Shown here piece after piece: positions 17,993 to 63,916 of a DNA stretch of 64,000 bases. The DNA is taken from assembly GCF_014856545.2 (NCBI RefSeq), contig NZ_CP109811.1, forward strand, positions 552,001 through 616,000. Direction: 5' to 3'. Source of the stretch: Mesobacillus jeotgali (GTDB lineage: Bacteria; Bacillota; Bacilli; Bacillales; Cytobacillaceae). Under the pieces are notes generated by a model that was given only the letters and a program-made list of their open reading frames with translations, did not search any database and had not been told where the DNA came from. Both the position numbers and the translations under genes were made by a program. Numbering within the stretch: the stretch's first letter is position 1; each line of letters starts with the position of its first letter.

Positions 17993-18970
17993 TTGTTAAA
18001 GAACGTTCAGATACAGGAAGCGATGGAAAAGCTGAAGGACAAAGTGCATCAGACTCCTTTAAAGCAAAGTACGACATTAAACTACTTAACGAATGCTGAC
18101 GTTTATTTAAAACTGGAGAATCTGCAGAAAACGGGTTCGTTCAAGCTAAGGGGCGCGATGAATAAAATTCTATCGTTATCAGACCAGGAAGTGAAAAATG
18201 GTATTCTTGCTGCTTCGGCCGGCAATCATGCCCAGGGGGTAGCACTGGCCGCATCGTTAAGGGGCGTCATGTCGAAAATTTATATGCCGAAGCATACACC
18301 TTTTTCCAAGGCTTCTGCCACAGAGGGATATGGTGCGGAAATCGCTTTGGTCGGCGAAACCTATGATGAATCCTATCAAAAAGCGGTTGAAGAAATGAAC
18401 CAGAATGGAAGCACTTTTGTCCATGCGTTTGATGATGAAAAGGTGATTGCAGGACAGGGAACGGTTGGGTTGGAACTTTTGCAGCAAAATGCTCAATTGG
18501 ACGTTATCTTTGTGCCTATTGGCGGGGGCGGGCTGATCTCGGGAGTGGCGCTCGCCATCAAAGCCACCAAGCCTTCCATTAAAGTTGTTGGCGTTCAGGC
18601 TGCCGGGGCACCTGCCACCTATCATAGATTTACCGGGCAAAAAATGCAGTCACCACAAGATATCCACACAATAGCAGACGGGATCATGGTGAAGGAACCT
18701 GGGGCCATAACCTACCCAATCATCGAAAAGTATGTCGATGACATCGTTACCGTAACCGATGAAGAAATCGCCCATGCCATCATGTTCATGCTTGAAAGGG
18801 AAAAGATGCTGGTCGAAGGAGCAGGAGCCGCAGCATTGGCCGCAATTTTATACAAAAAGTTCCCGGTTGACCGTAAGAAAATAGGATGTATCATCAGCGG
18901 CGGAAATGTAGACCCCGTTAAAATCCAAACCTATAAGGAAATGGCAAAAACAAGGAAGAAAATTGGATAA
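17993..18970 (+). CDS. ilvA: Threonine deaminase, short form without ACT domain
   Basis: A 325-residue PLP enzyme that converts threonine to 2-oxobutyrate, the isoleucine precursor. The PLP lysine is in TGSFKLRGA near residue 52, and the phosphate loop is the GGGGL near residue 180. It lacks the C-terminal regulatory domain of classical IlvA, so it is not expected to show isoleucine inhibition. The start is a TTG at 17993, the only usable start that keeps the N-terminus aligned with the paralogue at 37222; GAGGTGAG lies 12 bases upstream. It closes the ilv operon. Confidence 0.92.
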   Translation: MLKNVQIQEAMEKLKDKVHQTPLKQSTTLNYLTNADVYLKLENLQKTGSFKLRGAMNKILSLSDQEVKNGILAASAGNHAQGVALAASLRGVMSKIYMPKHTPFSKASATEGYGAEIALVGETYDESYQKAVEEMNQNGSTFVHAFDDEKVIAGQGTVGLELLQQNAQLDVIFVPIGGGGLISGVALAIKATKPSIKVVGVQAAGAPATYHRFTGQKMQSPQDIHTIADGIMVKEPGAITYPIIEKYVDDIVTVTDEEIAHAIMFMLEREKMLVEGAGAAALAAILYKKFPVDRKKIGCIISGGNVDPVKIQTYKEMAKTRKKIG

Positions 18971-37221: not shown

Positions 37222-38427
37222 ATGAATTTGGATGATGTGATTTTAGCGCGTGAAAAAATGAAAGGGATTGTGCATTCGACCCCTCTTGATTATTCTAAAA
37301 CATTTAGCACCCTCTCAAAAAATGAAGTGTTTTTGAAGCTTGAAAATCTGCAAAAGACAGGATCCTTTAAGGTCAGGGGCTCTTATAATAAACTGATCTC
37401 TTTGTCTCCTGAAGAGCTTCAGAAGGGAGTAGTGGCCGCTTCTGCCGGGAACCATGCCCAGGGAGTGGCGTATTCGAGCCAGATGCTTGGCATCCCATGT
37501 ACCATTGTCATGCCGAAAGGTGCACCCCTCAGCAAGGTGCTGGCGACGAGGCAATACGGAGCTGAAGTCATACTCGAAGGTGCCGTTTTTGATGAAGCCC
37601 TGGCTTATGCATCGGAGCTAAAAGACAAGCTGGGCGCCACTTTTATCCATGCCTTTGATGATGAGGCAGTCATTGCCGGGCAAGGAACAGTAGGATTGGA
37701 GATTCTTGATCAGCTTCCGGATGTGGAGGCGATTATCTGTCCTGTTGGCGGGGGAGGACTGATTGCGGGTGTGGCAATGGCGGTGAAAGAGAAAAAACCT
37801 GACATTAAGGTATATGGAGTCCAGACGCTCGCTTGTCCGAGCATGAAACAGTCGTTAAAGGAGAACCAGCCAGTCGCTGTAGAGTCTGCTCCAACAATGG
37901 CAGATGGAATTGCTGTCCAGAAGCCAGGGCTGAAGACTTTTGAAATCATCAGGAAGTATGTAGATGATATTTTCTGTGTGGATGAAATGGAAATCGCTAG
38001 AACCATGCTTCTTGTCCTAGAAAGAAATAAGCTGCTGGTTGAAGGATCAGGGGCAAGCCCGCTGGCTGCCCTGCTGTATGACAAAGTGAATCTTAGCGGT
38101 AAAAAGGTTGCCGTTGTTTTAAGCGGGGGAAATGTCGATGTCAATTTCATTTCCCGGATTATTGAACGCGGACTCGTTGAATCAGGCAGGTTTGCCCATT
38201 TTACAATTAACATAAAAGATAAGCCAGGGGAACTCCAAAGAGTGTTAAACTCTGTAACCGAACTAAATGCGAATATCCAATTTGTCAATCTCCATCGGAT
38301 TGGCAAGCATATCTATCCAGGCAATGCGCTGCTGGAGATCTCAGTAGAAACAAAAGACCATGCACATATTGAGCAGCTTTATAAGAATTTAAGGAGCCAG
38401 GGTTTTCAGCTGAAAACAGAGGAATGA
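37222..38427 (+). CDS. ilvA: Threonine deaminase with C-terminal ACT-like domain
   Basis: A 401-residue PLP enzyme. The PLP lysine is in TGSFKVRGSYN near residue 50, and the GGGGL phosphate loop is near residue 178. Residues about 325-401 form an ACT-like regulatory domain, as in the roughly 400-residue TdcB/IlvA type. The core is clearly paralogous to the protein at 17993-18970. This gene stands alone with AGGGGGC as ribosome binding site, so it may serve threonine breakdown rather than isoleucine synthesis. Confidence 0.92.
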   Translation: MNLDDVILAREKMKGIVHSTPLDYSKTFSTLSKNEVFLKLENLQKTGSFKVRGSYNKLISLSPEELQKGVVAASAGNHAQGVAYSSQMLGIPCTIVMPKGAPLSKVLATRQYGAEVILEGAVFDEALAYASELKDKLGATFIHAFDDEAVIAGQGTVGLEILDQLPDVEAIICPVGGGGLIAGVAMAVKEKKPDIKVYGVQTLACPSMKQSLKENQPVAVESAPTMADGIAVQKPGLKTFEIIRKYVDDIFCVDEMEIARTMLLVLERNKLLVEGSGASPLAALLYDKVNLSGKKVAVVLSGGNVDVNFISRIIERGLVESGRFAHFTINIKDKPGELQRVLNSVTELNANIQFVNLHRIGKHIYPGNALLEISVETKDHAHIEQLYKNLRSQGFQLKTEE

Positions 38428-44780: not shown

Positions 44781-44864
44781 TAAAGTTATTAAACTTTTAA
44801 AACTATTTTTCTTTTGTTTACGAATATATGGGAGAAGGGATTATTTCACAGGATGAGGCTAGAC

Positions 44865-45422
44865 ATGATGATGGAAAAAGTGTGGATTAGGAAGGTCCAG
44901 AGGAAGGGCGATGAACGGGCTGCGAATGAGCTTGTGAAGTTCTATTACCAGCAGATTTATGCGTTTGTGTACAGGCAGACGTTTGATAAGGAGCTGTCTC
45001 TGGATTTGACTCAGGAAATTTTCATAGGGATGCTGAAGTCGATTCAAGGCTTTGATCCGGCAAGGGGTTCGTTCAAGTCATGGCTGTACAGGATTGCGAC
45101 GAATCATGTCGTGGATTACTTCCGGTCGCGTAGCTACAAGTATGAGCGGATTGTGGATTCGATGGAGGAAGTGGATGTGCTGGTTCAAAATGATTTTACC
45201 CTGGAGCTTGAATTCAGGGAAGTTATTGAGAAGGCGAGCGCATTTGTGAATGAGCTGGATGCCTTCTCTCAGCAGGTCATGCGTTTGAAGCTTTTTGCTG
45301 AACATACTTTTCAGGAGATTGCCAGTTTGCTTGAGAGACCGGAATCATCAGTTAAGACGAGATATTATTCAGTGATGAAAAAATTAAAAGAATGGATGGA
45401 GGCTGAGCGCATTGAAGGATGA
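44865..45422 (+). CDS. ECF-type RNA polymerase sigma factor
   Basis: A 185-residue ECF sigma factor. Region 2 spans about residues 20-90 (QQIYAFVYRQTFDKELSL, GSFKSWLYRIATNHVVDYFR), and region 4 about 125-180 (FSQQVMRLKLFAEHTFQEIA, SSVKTRYYSVMKKL). The start at 44865 has ATGAGG upstream; the frame back to 44814 lacks a site. It overlaps the start of the next membrane gene by 11 bases and heads a five-gene operon with an ABC transporter, so it probably controls that operon and perhaps distant genes. Confidence 0.93.
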   Translation: MMMEKVWIRKVQRKGDERAANELVKFYYQQIYAFVYRQTFDKELSLDLTQEIFIGMLKSIQGFDPARGSFKSWLYRIATNHVVDYFRSRSYKYERIVDSMEEVDVLVQNDFTLELEFREVIEKASAFVNELDAFSQQVMRLKLFAEHTFQEIASLLERPESSVKTRYYSVMKKLKEWMEAERIEG

Positions 45423-46170
45423 CAAATGGTCTGTGGACTTTCCGGATGATTCCGAAATGACAGGCGAAATTCAAATCATTTTGTCAAAAGGTTTGATAAA
45501 GTCCAAGCCTTTTCATGAGTATCTGATGGAGATGTATAGGCAGCTGGGATTCAGGTATCTGTTTCGTGATGCAACGGAGGTTCTCTTCACGGTGCTGGTG
45601 GTTTCCTTTGCGATGGTGTTCGGCCTTTTCCAGGTCATGGATAGCGGGAAGGATGAGGGCGGACTGTACTCCTATCTGTTTACGATGTCACCCATCCTGT
45701 ACATGCTGATTGCTTCGCTTTTTCTGGTGAATCTGCGCAGCAGGGATACTTTCGCAGTAGAGATGACGTGCAAATACCATGTGTACCAGCTGGCAGCGTT
45801 CAGGATGCTTGTGTTCAGTGTCCTGGCGGTGCTGTTGAACTTGGCGTATATCCTGATTTTGTTCATGTTTTATCAAACGTTCAATATCGTGGAAGCAATG
45901 CTAATCTCTGTCAGCTCATTGAGCATTTTTTCTACGGGCTATTTATACATCATACAAAAGGTGAAATCAAGGATAACCTCTTATACATTGATGGCGGGTT
46001 GGCTGCTCGTGAACGCTGCGCTTGCTTATTTTAGTAAGGAATTATATGCCTCAGTGTTGAGCCAGGTCCCGTTTTATGTGTATATCAGCGTTATTGCGGG
46101 CTGTCTGTATCTCTATGTACGCCGGTTAAAATATTTCATTACATTCCGTAATGTCGAAGGAGTCATGTAA
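45412..46170 (+). CDS. Membrane protein, candidate anti-sigma or transporter partner
   Basis: A 252-residue protein. About 55 N-terminal cytoplasmic residues precede six helices (about 62-80, 92-108, 125-150, 155-175, 185-203 and 213-232). The start is a TTG at 45412 with GGAGG nine bases upstream, inside the sigma gene. No zinc-finger anti-sigma motif (HxxxCxxC) is present. Position directly after an ECF sigma suggests an anti-sigma role, but this is inference. It joins the ATPase gene without a gap. Confidence 0.72.
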   Translation: MKDDKWSVDFPDDSEMTGEIQIILSKGLIKSKPFHEYLMEMYRQLGFRYLFRDATEVLFTVLVVSFAMVFGLFQVMDSGKDEGGLYSYLFTMSPILYMLIASLFLVNLRSRDTFAVEMTCKYHVYQLAAFRMLVFSVLAVLLNLAYILILFMFYQTFNIVEAMLISVSSLSIFSTGYLYIIQKVKSRITSYTLMAGWLLVNAALAYFSKELYASVLSQVPFYVYISVIAGCLYLYVRRLKYFITFRNVEGVM

Positions 46171-52539: not shown

Positions 52540-53229
52540 ATGTTAAAGCTTTTGCTGATTGAGGATGATGCTTCTTTGTTCCAAGAGATTCGGGAGCGTC
52601 TGATTCAGTGGTCGTATGAGGTGTATGGGGTGACGGATTTTGGTGATGTGATGGGTGATTTTACGAGGGTTAAACCTGACTTGGTGATCATTGATATCCA
52701 GCTGCCGAGGTTTGATGGGTTTCATTGGTGCCGAATGATCCGGTCGCATTCGAATGTCCCGATCATTTTCCTGTCTTCACGTGACCACCCTACGGATATG
52801 GTCATGTCGATGCAGCTGGGAGCGGATGATTTTGTTCAAAAGCCGTTCCACTTTGATGTGCTGATTGCGAAAATCCAGGCAATCCTTCGTCGTGCCTATA
52901 ATTATAATGCGACCCAGAACCAGTTGAAGACATGGTGCGGGGCGACGATTGATTATGATAAAAATACGGTTGAAAATGAGATGGGCCGGATTGAATTGAC
53001 GAAGAATGAGATCTTCATTTTAAAGCTGCTGATTGATCAGAAAAACAAAATAGTCAGCCGTGATGAGGTAATGAACAGCTTGTGGGATGATAAGCGGTTC
53101 ATCAGCGACAATACGCTGACCGTCAACGTCAACCGACTGCGGAAAAAGCTGGATGAAATAGGGCTGGGCCGCAAAATTGAAACAAAGGTTGGACAGGGAT
53201 ATATGGCCGTTGAAGAGGGACATGTCTGA
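52540..53229 (+). CDS. OmpR-family response regulator, BceR-like
   Basis: A 229-residue regulator. Receiver domain: acidic IEDD, phospho-aspartate in VIIDIQLPRFDG near residue 52, lysine in VQKPFHF near residue 101. The winged-helix domain spans residues 125-225 (RDEVMNSLWDD, NTLTVNVNRLRKKL). Start at 52540 has GGTGG upstream; the GTG at 52528 is less likely. It forms an operon with a Bce-type kinase and transporter and should activate bceAB-like genes. Confidence 0.92.
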   Translation: MLKLLLIEDDASLFQEIRERLIQWSYEVYGVTDFGDVMGDFTRVKPDLVIIDIQLPRFDGFHWCRMIRSHSNVPIIFLSSRDHPTDMVMSMQLGADDFVQKPFHFDVLIAKIQAILRRAYNYNATQNQLKTWCGATIDYDKNTVENEMGRIELTKNEIFILKLLIDQKNKIVSRDEVMNSLWDDKRFISDNTLTVNVNRLRKKLDEIGLGRKIETKVGQGYMAVEEGHV

Positions 53230-54229
53230 TGTTTATTACATACTTAAAGGAACGGCGGAGCTGGATTCTGTTATTTCTGCTGCTCCAGTTTCTACTCGTT
53301 TTTATTGCTTATATCGATTCTGCTGTTTCGATGGAGTCGGCTCTTTATTATGTTTTTCTGTCAGCTCTTATATTTGTTATTTTTATCTTGATCCGTTTCC
53401 AGAAAGAAATGAGATTTTACCAAGGGCTGAAGGAAGCGGAGGATCTCCTGGAATTTTCAGATAGGGAACTGCACAGTCCATTTGAAGGGATGGTAGTCGA
53501 GAGCATCGCTTATCATTTGAAGCGCTGAAAAAAGCAGTGTCCGAGAATGAGCGGAGGCTGGATCAGGAAAAGGATGAGCTGCTTTCCTGGATCCATGAAG
53601 TGAAAACGCCGTTGACGGCTTTGAAATTGATGATTGATCGGCTTGAGGATCAGAGTTTAAAAAAGGAAATGACTTATGAGTGGCTGCGAATATATCTTTT
53701 ATTGGACCAGCAGCTGCATAAAAAACGAATCCCGTTCATGGAGAATGACTTGTACATTGAACAGACTGATCTGGAGGATGTGATTTTCGGAGAGGTCAAA
53801 ACCTTGCAGTCATGGTGCATCCAAAAAGGAATTGGCTTCGATATCGATCTGGAGTACAACGAAGTAATGACGGATGCCAAATGGCTTGCATTTATCCTGC
53901 GGCAGCTGTTGACGAATGCTGTGAAATACAGCGATGCATCAGATGTGCAGATTAGAAGTGGGCAGCGGGATGGGCAGACTATCCTCGAGATTGCCGACGA
54001 GGGCAGAGGGATTGATTCCAGGGATCTCCCGCGCATCTTTGAAAAAGGTTTTACATCCACAGCCCATCACCAGGATCATGCCGCAACCGGAATGGGCTTA
54101 TACCTGGCAAGGAAAGCTGCACAGCCGCTGAAAATCAGGATTGATGTGGAATCCGCACCTGGCAAGGGAAGCGCGTTCACTCTTACCTTCCCGAAAAGCA
54201 ATGAATTTGTGCAAATAACAGGCATGTGA
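53229..54229 (+). pseudogene. BceS-like sensor kinase, frameshifted
   Basis: An intramembrane-sensing kinase broken by one frameshift. Frame one (53229-53528) gives two helices (about 13-33 and 37-57), no extracellular domain, and a linker ending HLKR. The second frame picks up near 53500 and runs to 54229: SWIHEVKTPLTAL (phospho-histidine), QLLTNAVKYS, DEGRGID and GMGLYLA of the ATPase. All motifs are intact. Joined, the product would be about 333 residues, normal for BceS. A sequencing error, a recent mutation or programmed shifting are possible. Confidence 0.85.
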
Positions 54230-59850: not shown

Positions 59851-60933
59851 ATGATCTTGCTGAAAGATTTTTTAATACATTCTAGTTTTGTTATCACGTT
59901 TTTGTTTATAGGCGGAAGTTTATTTAAGAACAATCCGGAGATGGATACAACTCTTCAAAAATTAAAACTTGGGGCATTAGCCGGAATACTTGGTTCAGTG
60001 TTAATGGCTTTTAGTATTCAGATTACTCCTGTGATCATGATGGACTTGCGCCATGTCGCAATCCTGTTGTCTGCTTTTTATGGAGGGTTTGTTTCGGCTT
60101 TCGTAGCCGCGAGCATAATCAATATCAGCAGATTAGTATTTTTTGATGGAAGTTTGGAAACATTTCTGGTCACTGTGCTCATAATGTTTATTATTGCGGG
60201 GTTTGCCGCACTGGTTCAAAAAAAGGTAGAGGGTCCGGACTTTTTAAAGTGGACGATTATGGGATTGATTAGCTTAATTTCGATCTCCTCCGGCTTGTTG
60301 TATCTAATGGGCTTTTCTGATCAGGTATATCAACTTCTGGTTAACTATTGGGTTATTACAACAATATCAGGAGTTCTGGTGTATTTTTTGGCAGGATATA
60401 TCGTCCAGTCGAACCAAATGTTTTTGCATCTGAAAACCCAGTCGGCAACAGACTTCCTTACGGGATTAAATAATGTCAGACAGTTCGATTCTTCATTAAA
60501 TGAAAGTATAGAAAGTGCCCAGGAGCTTAATGAAAAATTATCATTGCTTATGATTGATATCGATCACTTCAAAAAGGTCAATGATACATATGGTCATCAA
60601 GCTGGAGATGAAGTATTAAGGCAATTGGGAGGATTGCTAATCACCTGCTCGCGCCCAAGCGATATTGTCTCAAGAAATGGCGGTGAAGAATTTTCTCTGT
60701 TATTAAAGAATTGTTCCTATTCCCAAGCGCTGGAAATCGCAGAACGCCTCCGCGGAATAGTGGAAAATCACCGATTCTCCATTCCAAATGGCAAAGAAAT
60801 CAAGCTTACCATCTCCCTTGGTGCTTCCACCTATCTAGAAACAACTCAATGCTTAGAAGATTTCATCAAACAGGCGGATGATACCTTATATAAGTCAAAA
60901 CGGACAGGAAGAAATAAGGTATCCGCACTATAA
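59851..60933 (+). CDS. Diguanylate cyclase with 5TM-Lyt sensor
   Basis: A 360-residue protein: an N-terminal 5TM_5TMR_LYT membrane sensor (about residues 1-185) and a GGDEF domain (about 198-355). The active site is RNGGEEFSLL, and the I-site RPSD lies five residues before it, so product feedback is expected, unlike the cyclase at 32686. Start is ATG 59851, but the AGGTGGT upstream is close to it; TTG 59857 would have better spacing. The expected output is cyclic di-GMP. Confidence 0.92.
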   Translation: MILLKDFLIHSSFVITFLFIGGSLFKNNPEMDTTLQKLKLGALAGILGSVLMAFSIQITPVIMMDLRHVAILLSAFYGGFVSAFVAASIINISRLVFFDGSLETFLVTVLIMFIIAGFAALVQKKVEGPDFLKWTIMGLISLISISSGLLYLMGFSDQVYQLLVNYWVITTISGVLVYFLAGYIVQSNQMFLHLKTQSATDFLTGLNNVRQFDSSLNESIESAQELNEKLSLLMIDIDHFKKVNDTYGHQAGDEVLRQLGGLLITCSRPSDIVSRNGGEEFSLLLKNCSYSQALEIAERLRGIVENHRFSIPNGKEIKLTISLGASTYLETTQCLEDFIKQADDTLYKSKRTGRNKVSAL

Positions 60934-60967
60934 AGCCCGGGGGGGACGTACCCTGGGCTTTTTTATT
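60933..60967 (+). terminator. Terminator made from a dispersed GGGGGACGTACCC repeat
   Basis: AAGCCCGGG and CCTGGGCTT arms around GGGGACGTA, followed by TTTTTATTTT. Overlaps the cyclase stop region. Confidence 0.85.
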
Positions 60968-61103
60968 TTGTGTACGTCGTTAAAATATTTGCCTAATGAA
61001 AGCAATATCAGCAAGCTTCCATTTTTTAAAAGACATCTAGCATAATAGGGAATTAAAGGTAAAATAGAGTTAAAGAGAAAGTGTGTTAAAAGGGGGGGAT
61101 AAA

Positions 61104-63158
61104 TTGATTCCAGCAAAAATGGATGCCATCACGATCGCAACTGTTCAAGAAAAGGGAATCGATTCTGTCGTGGATTGGTTCGAACGGCATAAGCAACCCT
61201 TTTATGCACTAGGCTGGTTTTATCTTCGCAATCAGCAGCAAATGGAAGAACTATTTTACCGGTCAATTATAAAAGTACACAGGGAATTGCCTCGATATAA
61301 AAAAGATACCTCATTTCAATTATGGGTTGCTTCAATTTTCATTGATATTTGCCGGGAGCTTTCGGACGATGAAGTCACGCTGACATCAGAGGAAGATGCA
61401 TCACATCAGGATTTATTTAGTGCACTGGATCAACTTGAGGATGCGGAAAAAGAAGCGATGGTCCTTACATATGGCACAGGGTTCTCCCAAGAGGAAGCTT
61501 CACATATTTTACGAGTTTCAGTGGATAAAATGAAAGAGCTGTTGTTCTCCGGGACTCAGTCGGTCAGAAAACAATTGTACGGCGCAACTTTTAACGGCTG
61601 TAAAGAATATCAGAAGAACTACATTGATTATCTGGAAAAAAGGATGGAGCGGCCGGAAAAAATAGAGTTTGAGATCCATCTTTACAAATGCCGGGAATGT
61701 CAGGAGGATTTGGCTGCCTTTCAGGATGTCACCTTGATGTTACATCATGCTGAGTGGATGAATGATTTGACCGTGCCGGAGCATTTAATCGCGAATATCA
61801 AAGAACGGTTTTCAGAAAAAGAGCAGCAGAGGCAGCAGAAATTTAAAAAGCTTAAAAAAGTGGCACTGGTCTTTGCAAGTGTTTTTGCCATTGTGATCGG
61901 GATTGGTTTCTTTACTGGCGCTTTTGCAAATGTCTATTATACTTGGACCGAAGAGGATGAGCAATTACGTACCTTCCTGCAGCAGAACCTTGGCCAAAGG
62001 GTGAACCTGGAAGCAGAAAGCGACGGTGTGAAAATCAGAATCAAGGGTGTCGTTGCTGATGATTATCAGACACTTGTTTTTTATGAAATAGAAGATACAA
62101 ATGAGGATAAACAATATGTAATGAATTTCGATGACGGGCTTATTATAGAAAACGAGAATGAACTCATGAAGCACAATACATATCCAAGGTATCATCCACC
62201 GGATCTTAAGGCGGAGATGAATAAAAAGGAAAAGAATCTGTTTTACGGCAAGGTTGGACTGCGGCCGCTTGAGGAAGATAGTGGTGTTATTGAAATGAAT
62301 ATTGAGAGGATTCAGGAACTGGTTCTCGATGGTCATGAGGCAATGTTGGGATTTGGTTACAGGAGCAATGGATTTAAAACAGGTGAGTGGAAATTCGAAA
62401 TCCCGGTGACTAAGCAGCCTTCCGTCGAGTATGAATTGAATGAACAAGCAGAAATCGAAGGAATCCCGGTTCGCCTGGATAAATTGATCATGGCCCCAAC
62501 AGCCACGGTTTTGGAATATGGTATTCCGATGGGAGATCAGGATAAGAGGATTGATCAAATTCGTTTTGGAAATTTAAAAGTGAACGGTGTAAAGGTGAAA
62601 CCGGATCAATTTGGCGGTTATCAACATTTACAGCCTGAACACAATTGGCAAATACTCCAAATGTATTACGATCCGTTTTACGGAGAGGAACCGAAAGACG
62701 TTACCGTTCAATTTGATTCTGCCTATTTTTCATACAAAGACCAGAAAAGCATCGAACTGGATGCAAATGCGCAGTATCCTCAGACATTTGAATATGCGGG
62801 AAGCACCATCAGCATTGATAAAGTTGAAATTGGCCAGCCCACGACCGTTGTCATCAGCAATCATGAAGTTGAAAACCGGGAATTTGAGACACTCCACATT
62901 AATGTTGTAGGGGAAAATGAACACGAACCAATTTCAATGGGGATGAGTACTGAGGGAGTTATTGTTGATAAGAACGGTGTTGAATACGATATGAATTCTG
63001 GCTCATTCGATTATGAAAAAATAGAACAGCCCCGCCATTTCGTTACTGTCCAAAATTTAATGTTGGACGGCGACGAAATCATCCCTAAAAGACTGGATAT
63101 ATACGGATATAACTCGATGAAATATTTGGATGATGTGGTGGAGATTTCGCTGGATTGA
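61104..63158 (+). CDS. Sigma factor-like / anti-sigma-like transmembrane fusion
   Basis: A 684-residue single polypeptide. Residues about 31-88 look like ECF sigma region 2 (FYALGWFYLRNQQQMEELFY, SFQLWVASIFIDICREL). Residues about 108-158 look like region 4 (FSQEEASHILRVSVDKM). Residues 166-215 look like a zinc-binding anti-sigma domain, with Cys166 and the His192-X3-Cys196-X2-Cys199 motif. A helix (252-274) leads to about 410 extracellular beta-rich residues of the DUF4179/DUF5643 kind. Start is TTG 61104 behind AAAAGGGGGGG. Normally these are two genes. It stands alone. Confidence 0.82.
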   Translation: MIPAKMDAITIATVQEKGIDSVVDWFERHKQPFYALGWFYLRNQQQMEELFYRSIIKVHRELPRYKKDTSFQLWVASIFIDICRELSDDEVTLTSEEDASHQDLFSALDQLEDAEKEAMVLTYGTGFSQEEASHILRVSVDKMKELLFSGTQSVRKQLYGATFNGCKEYQKNYIDYLEKRMERPEKIEFEIHLYKCRECQEDLAAFQDVTLMLHHAEWMNDLTVPEHLIANIKERFSEKEQQRQQKFKKLKKVALVFASVFAIVIGIGFFTGAFANVYYTWTEEDEQLRTFLQQNLGQRVNLEAESDGVKIRIKGVVADDYQTLVFYEIEDTNEDKQYVMNFDDGLIIENENELMKHNTYPRYHPPDLKAEMNKKEKNLFYGKVGLRPLEEDSGVIEMNIERIQELVLDGHEAMLGFGYRSNGFKTGEWKFEIPVTKQPSVEYELNEQAEIEGIPVRLDKLIMAPTATVLEYGIPMGDQDKRIDQIRFGNLKVNGVKVKPDQFGGYQHLQPEHNWQILQMYYDPFYGEEPKDVTVQFDSAYFSYKDQKSIELDANAQYPQTFEYAGSTISIDKVEIGQPTTVVISNHEVENREFETLHINVVGENEHEPISMGMSTEGVIVDKNGVEYDMNSGSFDYEKIEQPRHFVTVQNLMLDGDEIIPKRLDIYGYNSMKYLDDVVEISLD

Positions 63159-63200
63159 TTAAGCGCAGAGGGACGTTTAGCTTTTATCGCCCTTGTTAAA

Positions 63201-63235
63201 AGAGCACAGGGATAAAATTCCGTGTGCTCTTTTTA
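63201..63235. terminator. Terminator between converging genes
   Basis: AGAGCACA and TGTGCTCT arms around GGGATAAAATTCCG, then TTTTTA. A-rich left side may serve the minus-strand gene. Confidence 0.85.
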
Positions 63236-63241
63236 TTCTCT

Positions 63242-63916
63242 TCACTTCTTGCCAATATGCTTCAAGGCTTCTCTTCGGCTTAAGTTTGAAAGAGGGAGCC
63301 TGTTCGTCATCTCAAGGACTTTCTCAGGGTTTTGCTTAGCGTATTCTCTTAAGGCCCAGCCTATTGCTTTATTGATAAAAAATTCATTTGTATGGCAGGT
63401 TCTTGAAATAATGTCCTCAAGCATGGCTGCGTCGGTTCTTTCTTTATAGCCTAATTGAAATAATATGCAGGAACGGATCAGCCAGATGTTATCCGATGCG
63501 ATCCATCTGTCGATAATAGGCTGCCTGTGCTGCGGGCATTTTTCTAGATAGTAGCCAAAGTGCTTCTTCGCAATATGGTCGACCGTGTCCCACCAGGGCT
63601 TCGTTGTGATGATGTATTCCAGAAGCTGGAGATCATCTTCGGTGAACTGTTTTTTCATTAAATCTAACAGGTATGCCCCGCTAATCTGCATTTCCCGTTC
63701 TTCCAGCTTCCAGAGGGAAGTGATGACCTCGTGTAAATCTTCCTTTGCAGGCAGGCCGTAAGTCTTTACATGCTGTTTGAAAAGCTCCTGCATCTGCGGA
63801 GCCCTCAAACCAATATATTCAAATTGATTCCGCATGTATTTAGACAGCCTGGCCGCTTCCGTGCTATTCCGGTGTTTTAATGCTTCCTCGTATAATGCTT
63901 TGACGTAGTTGTTCAT
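63242..63916 (-). CDS. DNA alkylation repair protein (AlkD-like)
   Basis: A 224-residue all-helical HEAT-like repeat protein of the AlkD family, which removes bulky or cationic alkylated bases. The N-terminal segments (NYVKALYEEALKHRN, RNQFEYIGLRAPQM) and the W-W-D-T-V-D-H helix near residue 110 match the family. The C-terminus reads SRREALKHIGKK. A truncated relative is at 36868-37070. Start ATG 63916 has TGAGGAACAG upstream. Confidence 0.92.
   Translation of the reverse strand: MNNYVKALYEEALKHRNSTEAARLSKYMRNQFEYIGLRAPQMQELFKQHVKTYGLPAKEDLHEVITSLWKLEEREMQISGAYLLDLMKKQFTEDDLQLLEYIITTKPWWDTVDHIAKKHFGYYLEKCPQHRQPIIDRWIASDNIWLIRSCILFQLGYKERTDAAMLEDIISRTCHTNEFFINKAIGWALREYAKQNPEKVLEMTNRLPLSNLSRREALKHIGKK

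What the first reader, a model, noticed from the sequence alone, without database searches (positions are those of the whole stretch)
61104..63158. Sigma factor and anti-sigma factor fused into one membrane protein
One uninterrupted frame encodes sigma region 2-like and region 4-like segments, then a zinc-finger anti-sigma-like domain (His192, Cys196, Cys199), a transmembrane helix and a large extracellular sensor. ECF sigma factors and their anti-sigma partners are normally separate adjacent genes. A fused pair would need proteolysis to release the sigma part, or the sigma part is degenerate and works only as a decoy or scaffold.
Basis: partly seen in the sequence, partly recalled or inferred. 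Interest (0 to 1): 0.72.

Follow-up and report, generated by a model that had tools for sequence, protein, structure and literature searches.

The report
Sigma factor fused to its inhibitor
A relative of Bacillus carries a membrane sensor protein in which a gene-switching factor and its own inhibitor have merged into one chain, and the switching half looks as if it has lost its grip on DNA while still being kept by evolution, so it has probably become part of the sensor rather than a releasable switch.

Summary
Window 61104-63158 (+) encodes one 684-residue protein: ECF sigma-like domain (1-160), zinc anti-sigma domain (C166, H192, C196, C199), one transmembrane helix, then a DUF4179/DUF5643 sensor. 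It is no assembly error: the genome is one contig, 98 distinct fused proteins (its own included) were recovered, and 94 of 151 family genomes hold one (my reading). Rarer relatives are split into adjacent sigma and anti-sigma genes; a tree is compatible with one fusion.

The sigma half is degenerate in a specific way. Of five canonical DNA-side features the 98 fused proteins keep none or one (25); all 11 split relatives keep five. Split sigma genes have a GGAAC-N18-CTCTAATT promoter (10 of 11 exact); the core fused genes do not (0 of 97 within two mismatches). Yet the sigma half is under purifying selection (dN/dS 0.24-0.28). A low-confidence model shows it in the closed, inhibitor-bound shape.

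So 'decoy or scaffold' is better supported than 'sigma released by proteolysis'. Sigma/anti-sigma fusions are known (IutY, ECF52); this Bacillaceae-centred lineage with a pseudo-sigma is a new variant. What it signals to is unknown.

The parts
61104..63158 (+). whole fused sigma/anti-sigma/sensor gene, 684 aa, TTG start, TGA stop
   Evidence: full-length relatives
61092..61098 (+). Shine-Dalgarno-like run of G before the TTG start
   Evidence: read; G-rich stretch also seen by eye before many relatives' starts
61161..61382 (+). sigma region 2-like segment, residues 20-93; lacks the canonical Asn (81) and basic residues
61422..61583 (+). sigma region 4-like segment, residues 107-160; recognition-helix basic residues at 146 and 149 lost
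61590..61748 (+). zinc anti-sigma domain, residues 163-215, likely ligands C166, H192, C196, C199 (98 of 98 fused proteins)
61749..61847 (+). last anti-sigma helix and juxtamembrane stretch, residues 216-248, predicted continuous with the membrane helix (228-271)
61848..61928 (+). single transmembrane helix, residues about 249-275, lysine-rich on its N-terminal side
61839..62093 (+). DUF4179 match, residues 246-330; residues 276-330 are the most conserved segment of the family
62427..62765 (+). DUF5643 match, residues 442-554, outer sensor part

Best explanation
This is a membrane sensor, N-terminus inside, descended from an ordinary two-gene ECF sigma/DUF4179-anti-sigma operon whose two genes fused. 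SHOWN by sequence: the fusion, its recurrence, its split sister lineage, the loss of DNA-side residues and of the split genes' promoter in the window's clade, full conservation of the zinc site, and purifying selection on the sigma half. INFERRED: the sigma half no longer reads promoters; it has become a permanent in-chain partner of its own zinc anti-sigma domain, a pseudo-sigma that keeps the closed sigma/anti-sigma module folded under the membrane helix. An outside signal felt by the DUF4179/DUF5643 part would act by changing how that module is presented to a partner in the cell (another sigma, another anti-sigma, or RNA polymerase), not by freeing a promoter-reading sigma factor. The partner is not known.
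Confidence: 0.55

Rival explanations
1. A working sigma factor held in-chain by its anti-sigma domain: an outer signal triggers site-1 and site-2 cleavage, and the freed sigma, with altered promoter preference, drives transcription (IutY/ECF52-like).
For: Architecture as in IutY and ECF52; DUF4179 of RsiV holds a signal peptidase site (PMC6066255, passages) and the window protein has A-F-A at 273-275; ECF superfamily score above cut-off on residues 1-165; purifying selection on the sigma half.
Against: DNA-side features 0 or 1 of 5 in 98 of 98; the split genes' promoter is missing before core fused genes; small residues at both 273 and 275 in 35 of 98 core fused, and by a looser alignment in 51 of 134 fused against 8 of 12 split.
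Confidence: 0.2
2. A membrane-anchored sigma mimic that works in partner switching, like PhyR: on signal, the pseudo-sigma lets go of its own zinc domain and binds another anti-sigma, or the zinc domain is freed to bind another sigma, so one sensor controls a different sigma factor in trans.
For: The PhyR sigma-like domain is the best solved sequence match of the sigma half; both halves are under purifying selection; the own genome has many other sigma genes as possible targets (21 taken as ECF-like from the list).
Against: No trans partner identified; no conserved neighbour gene (best cluster 11 of 71 loci); by my reading only 7 of 94 genomes with the fused gene also hold the split pair at E<=1e-10, so that pair is not the general target.
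Confidence: 0.2
3. The sigma half is a passive remnant that only helps the protein fold; the selected function lies entirely outside the cell.
For: Parts of region 2 or the linker are missing in some lineages (L178-L180, L182, L183, L200-L202); one fused gene elsewhere has lost its membrane helix and DUF4179 (L122).
Against: Sigma2 and sigma4 evolve no faster than the outer part (0.24 and 0.28 against 0.28); among the matches listed I saw no intact member of this clade without a sigma-like part fused or next door, though in L112 it is damaged and only some candidates per genome were scored.
Confidence: 0.1

Closest known systems
IutY of Pseudomonas putida (ECF243, some members)
   Same: sigma and membrane anti-sigma in one chain; the one case where release by Prc and RseP was shown, according to the review PMC8999054 (passages)
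   Different: iron-starvation cell-surface signalling in a Gram-negative; no FecR-type match in the window protein at E up to 5 (that IutY's anti-sigma part is FecR-type is recalled); here the sigma half lacks DNA-side residues
ECF52 group, SCO4117 of Streptomyces coelicolor
   Same: sigma domain, zinc finger, transmembrane helix and outer part in one protein (PMC5826349, passages)
   Different: described as exclusive to Actinobacteria, with proline-rich and carbohydrate-binding parts; SCO4117 affects many genes; here DUF4179/DUF5643 and a degenerate sigma half
RsiV and other DUF4179 anti-sigma factors (ECF30 partners)
   Different: RsiV is a separate protein with an active sigma; its signal peptidase site has no conserved counterpart at 273/275 here
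PhyR sigma-like domain (anti-anti-sigma)
   Same: sigma fold that engages an anti-sigma; best solved match of the sigma half by sequence
   Different: response regulator acting on NepR in trans (recalled; titles); here the partner domain is zinc-type and in the same chain
Split sister family found here (L105-L111, L194-L197)
   Same: closest relatives in the tree; same anti-sigma and sensor layout
   Different: two genes, overlapping by 4-20 nt in 9 of 11 and just apart in 2 of 11; intact DNA-side residues; ECF-type promoter

Membership tests
ECF sigma factor | region 2 and region 4 fold/profile | tested here: met
ECF sigma factor | DNA-side residues of regions 2.3/2.4 and 4.2 | tested here: not met
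   0 or 1 of 5 features in 98 of 98 fused core; 3-5 in 20 of 21 own-genome ECFs
ECF sigma factor | recognises a promoter with core RNA polymerase | not testable with these tools
   needs in vitro transcription; split relatives' promoter absent before core fused genes
Class I zinc anti-sigma domain | zinc site (here C-x25-H-x3-C-x2-C) and a fourth helix before the membrane | tested here: met
   CHCC in 98 of 98; helix 228-271 in the model; class I layout as in PMC7406223 (passages); zf-HC2 score below cut-off
Class I zinc anti-sigma domain | binds its sigma partner | not testable with these tools
   closed arrangement only predicted
DUF4179 anti-sigma (RsiV type) | DUF4179 domain with one membrane helix | tested here: met
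   60.2 bits against 30.1; helix 249-275
DUF4179 anti-sigma (RsiV type) | signal peptidase site at the membrane edge | tested here: inconclusive
   window protein has A-F-A at 273-275, but small residues at both places in 35 of 98
ECF52 | carbohydrate-binding and proline-rich outer part, Actinobacteria | tested here: not met
   no carbohydrate-binding Pfam match at E up to 5; named relatives are Bacillus, Mesobacillus and Perspicuibacillus, Mesobacillus being Bacillaceae
IutY-type (ECF243) | FecR-type iron-signalling anti-sigma | tested here: not met
   no FecR match at E up to 5
PhyR-type sigma mimic | sigma fold without DNA-side residues | tested here: met
PhyR-type sigma mimic | receiver domain controlling the mimic | tested here: not met
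   no receiver domain in the Pfam scan at E up to 5
PhyR-type sigma mimic | acts on an anti-sigma in trans | not testable with these tools
   needs pull-down or two-hybrid

The most novel reading that the evidence does not exclude
A widespread family of Bacillaceae-type membrane sensors has turned a captured sigma factor into a built-in sigma mimic: the pseudo-sigma occupies its own zinc anti-sigma domain, and an outside signal switches that lock so that one of the two halves captures or frees a different sigma factor. This would be a one-protein, membrane-bound partner switch, reached through a two-gene operon, then a fusion, then loss of DNA reading.
Probability: 0.2. Interest if true: 0.8.

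Novelty: new variant of a known kind. Interest (0 to 1): 0.55.

Why it matters
Fused sigma/anti-sigma proteins are known but are read as sigma factors awaiting release. Here living split relatives, a fused clade and intermediates that keep 2-4 of 5 DNA-side features lie side by side, so the conversion of a transcription factor into a non-DNA-reading regulatory part can be followed and tested. It also warns against annotating these common proteins as sigma factors: a profile hit over the cut-off coexists with lost DNA contacts.

Tried and rejected
Assembly error: rejected (complete single contig, many relatives). Chance sigma similarity: rejected (curated cut-offs passed on residues 1-165, fold match). 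Loss of RNA-polymerase binding as an argument: dropped, because Q52 and E53 are lost in the split sigmas too (Q52 kept in 2 of 11, D/E53 in 0 of 11), which look active by their promoters. Shared gene neighbourhood: none strong (best cluster 11 of 71 loci). Consensus sigma-70 promoter scan of 60900-63260: not above shuffles. Wider spread: at E<=1e-16, hits in 4 of 398 class genomes, all of the same order. Short model A1: region 4 under pLDDT 50. Literature: searches for the fusion terms, DUF4179, ECF265, DUF5643 (no papers) and pseudo-sigma terms showed no description of this Bacillaceae fusion in what I saw, which was listings, plus passages of PMC8999054, PMC5826349, PMC6066255, PMC8844934 and PMC7406223; the ECF reclassification paper is not held and may list it.

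Rows dropped before counts: L122 (353-aa internal-deletion form) left out of the 98; frame-broken or N-terminally short copies L005/L032, L025/L123, L120, L121 never entered them; L005 also left out of the tree; L112 (damaged sigma) is in the tree but not in sigma comparisons. L152 was left out of the 25 canonical rows of the column test (20 own-genome plus 5 outgroup). The tree used 42 of 134 fused rows (18 of the core, all 24 divergent). Of the 41 'wider' rows 6 are the same genes as core rows. In one search a few wider genes count twice, one core gene has too short an upstream stretch, and starts of wider genes are estimated.

Full report
OBSERVATION. The frame 61104-63158 on the + strand is real and encodes 684 residues. 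Curated profiles place an ECF sigma domain (TIGR02937, 43.9 bits against 42.9 on residues 1-165, 37 bits on the whole protein; Sigma70_r4 above and Sigma70_r2 below its cut-off), a zinc anti-sigma domain (zf-HC2 below cut-off), DUF4179 and DUF5643 (both above cut-off). One hydrophobic helix lies near residues 249-275. The genome G000 is a single 4.84 Mb contig, and a second fused gene (489848-491866, 56% identical) lies elsewhere in it.

DISTRIBUTION. In 151 genomes of the family, own genome included, 98 match at E<=1e-10. Reading that table, 4 of the 98 (G067, G072, G102, G126) lack a single-frame match from sigma to sensor, leaving 94; a few of these also hold a frame-broken copy, and G080's match counts one stop near its start. 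In 299 genomes of the order, 185 match a sigma-plus-anti-sigma profile at E<=1e-6, many by ordinary ECF sigmas alone; by my reading 42 hold a fused gene, in 8 of 47 family codes. At E<=1e-16, 4 of 398 genomes of the class match and all 4 are of the same order. Named relatives are Mesobacillus, Bacillus sp. and Perspicuibacillus; Mesobacillus is placed in Bacillaceae, Caryophanales.

SPLIT RELATIVES. Eight family genomes (G025, G042, G081, G088, G093, G101, G126, G140) and at least four order genomes (G273, G292, G371, G391) carry the same parts as two adjacent genes; in G140 the sigma gene is damaged. In 11 intact pairs the genes overlap by 4-20 nt or lie just apart. A maximum-likelihood tree of the anti-sigma and sensor part (42 fused, 12 split, 5 outgroup pairs) puts all fused on one side of a branch (support 89/82, not starred) and all split on one side of another (97/94, starred). 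One fusion is therefore the simplest reading, not a proven one.

THE SIGMA HALF IS DEGENERATE ON THE DNA SIDE. Aligning 98 fused, 11 split, 5 outgroup and 21 own-genome sigmas, I scored five features: N81, K/R at 88 or 89, S/T145, K/R146, K/R149. Their role in -10 and -35 contact is recalled; I picked them after seeing the alignment. Fused core proteins keep 0 (73) or 1 (25); split keep 5 in 11 of 11; outgroup pairs keep 4 in 5 of 5; own-genome sigmas keep 3-5 in 20 of 21. To avoid picking positions after the fact I also took all 41 columns with one residue class in at least 75% of 25 ordinary ECFs. Thirteen are kept in under a quarter of the fused: five of these are kept in split, eight are altered in both. 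Of the 23 hydrophobic columns 18 are kept in fused. Three of the five fused-specific losses are on the DNA side, two (118, 132) are hydrophobic. Charges agree. Results against: K144 and R155 remain in 92% and 100%, and in the wider set of 41 fused rows 13 keep two, 5 keep three and 2 keep four features, for example L191, L192 and L177/L204 with a nearly intact recognition helix. So the loss is graded across lineages and near complete in the window's clade. Some lineages lack part of region 2 or the linker (L178-L180, L182, L183, L200-L202).

THE PROMOTER IS GONE. All 11 split sigma genes have GGAAC-N18-CTCTAATT upstream (10 exact, 1 with two mismatches), the form of an ECF autoregulatory promoter (form recalled). 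In 151 family genomes the exact motif occurs once in each of the 7 genomes with an intact split pair, directly before the sigma gene, and in 17 of the other 144; the reversed control occurs in 12 of 151. In the order search the copies with five T after GGAAC are those before the split sigmas of G273, G292 and G371. Before fused genes: 0 of 97 core and 1 of 31 wider rows within two mismatches (the one has exactly two), against 3 of 485 and 0 of 155 in shuffles. G000 has no exact match.

THE SIGMA HALF IS STILL SELECTED. Over 42 independent pairs of relatives (41 for the zinc domain and DUF4179) dN/dS is 0.24 for sigma2, 0.28 for sigma4, 0.15 for the zinc domain, 0.15 for DUF4179 and 0.28 for the outer part. 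The four likely zinc ligands are kept in 98 of 98. Among the matches listed I saw no intact anti-sigma/sensor gene of this clade without a sigma-like part fused or next door, though in L112 that part is damaged.

MECHANISM. Shown: fusion, split sister group, graded loss of DNA-side residues, loss of the promoter, conserved zinc site, purifying selection. Inferred: a closed in-chain complex, no promoter reading, signalling through exposure of the module to a partner. Site-1 cleavage: DUF4179 of RsiV holds a signal peptidase site (PMC6066255, passages), and the commonest type I site is A-x-A (PMC8844934, passages). The window protein has A-F-A at 273-275, but small residues at both places occur in 35 of 98 core fused proteins and, by a looser alignment, in 51 of 134 fused and 8 of 12 split. 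Release by signal peptidase at this place is therefore not a family trait; cuts elsewhere were not tested.

COMPARISON. The review PMC8999054 (passages) names IutY as the one proven case activated by proteolysis and ECF48, ECF52 and ECF53 as expected ones; SCO4117 is the studied ECF52 member (PMC5826349, passages). In the passages seen neither describes a Bacillaceae fusion with DUF4179 or a degenerate sigma half. My searches covered open-licence papers only and were seen mostly as listings, and the 2021 ECF reclassification was not held, so prior listing of this group cannot be excluded.

Noticed in passing
window 53181-54229: A sensor-kinase-like gene (by eye) between a response-regulator-like and ABC-transporter-like genes changes frame: the membrane-spanning start is in another frame than the kinase part. 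Described only; pieces not joined.
   Followed up: partly
L122 (G126:C33): A fused gene in which about 336 residues, including the membrane helix and DUF4179, are missing in frame, leaving sigma, zinc domain and the C-terminal outer part.
   Followed up: no
L005 / L032 (Mesobacillus boroniphilus contig): The fused frame is interrupted near residue 184, between sigma and sensor parts, in a draft assembly; error or real separation not known.
   Followed up: no
L105-L111, L194-L197: A small ECF sigma family with a strictly spaced promoter (GGAAC-N18-CTCTAATT); in the family genomes the exact motif was found once each, before the pair itself.
   Followed up: partly
L089, L114, L185, L204 (and L203, 4 kb apart): Tandem or neighbouring fused paralogues in several genomes; the own genome has two unlinked copies.
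   Followed up: no
window 44814-46170: Another ECF sigma gene (L139) followed at once by a 252-residue membrane-protein-like gene and ABC-transporter-like genes (by eye), possibly a separate sigma/regulator unit.
   Followed up: no
window 17993-18970 and 37222-38427: Two threonine-dehydratase-like genes (by eye) of different length in one window.
   Followed up: no
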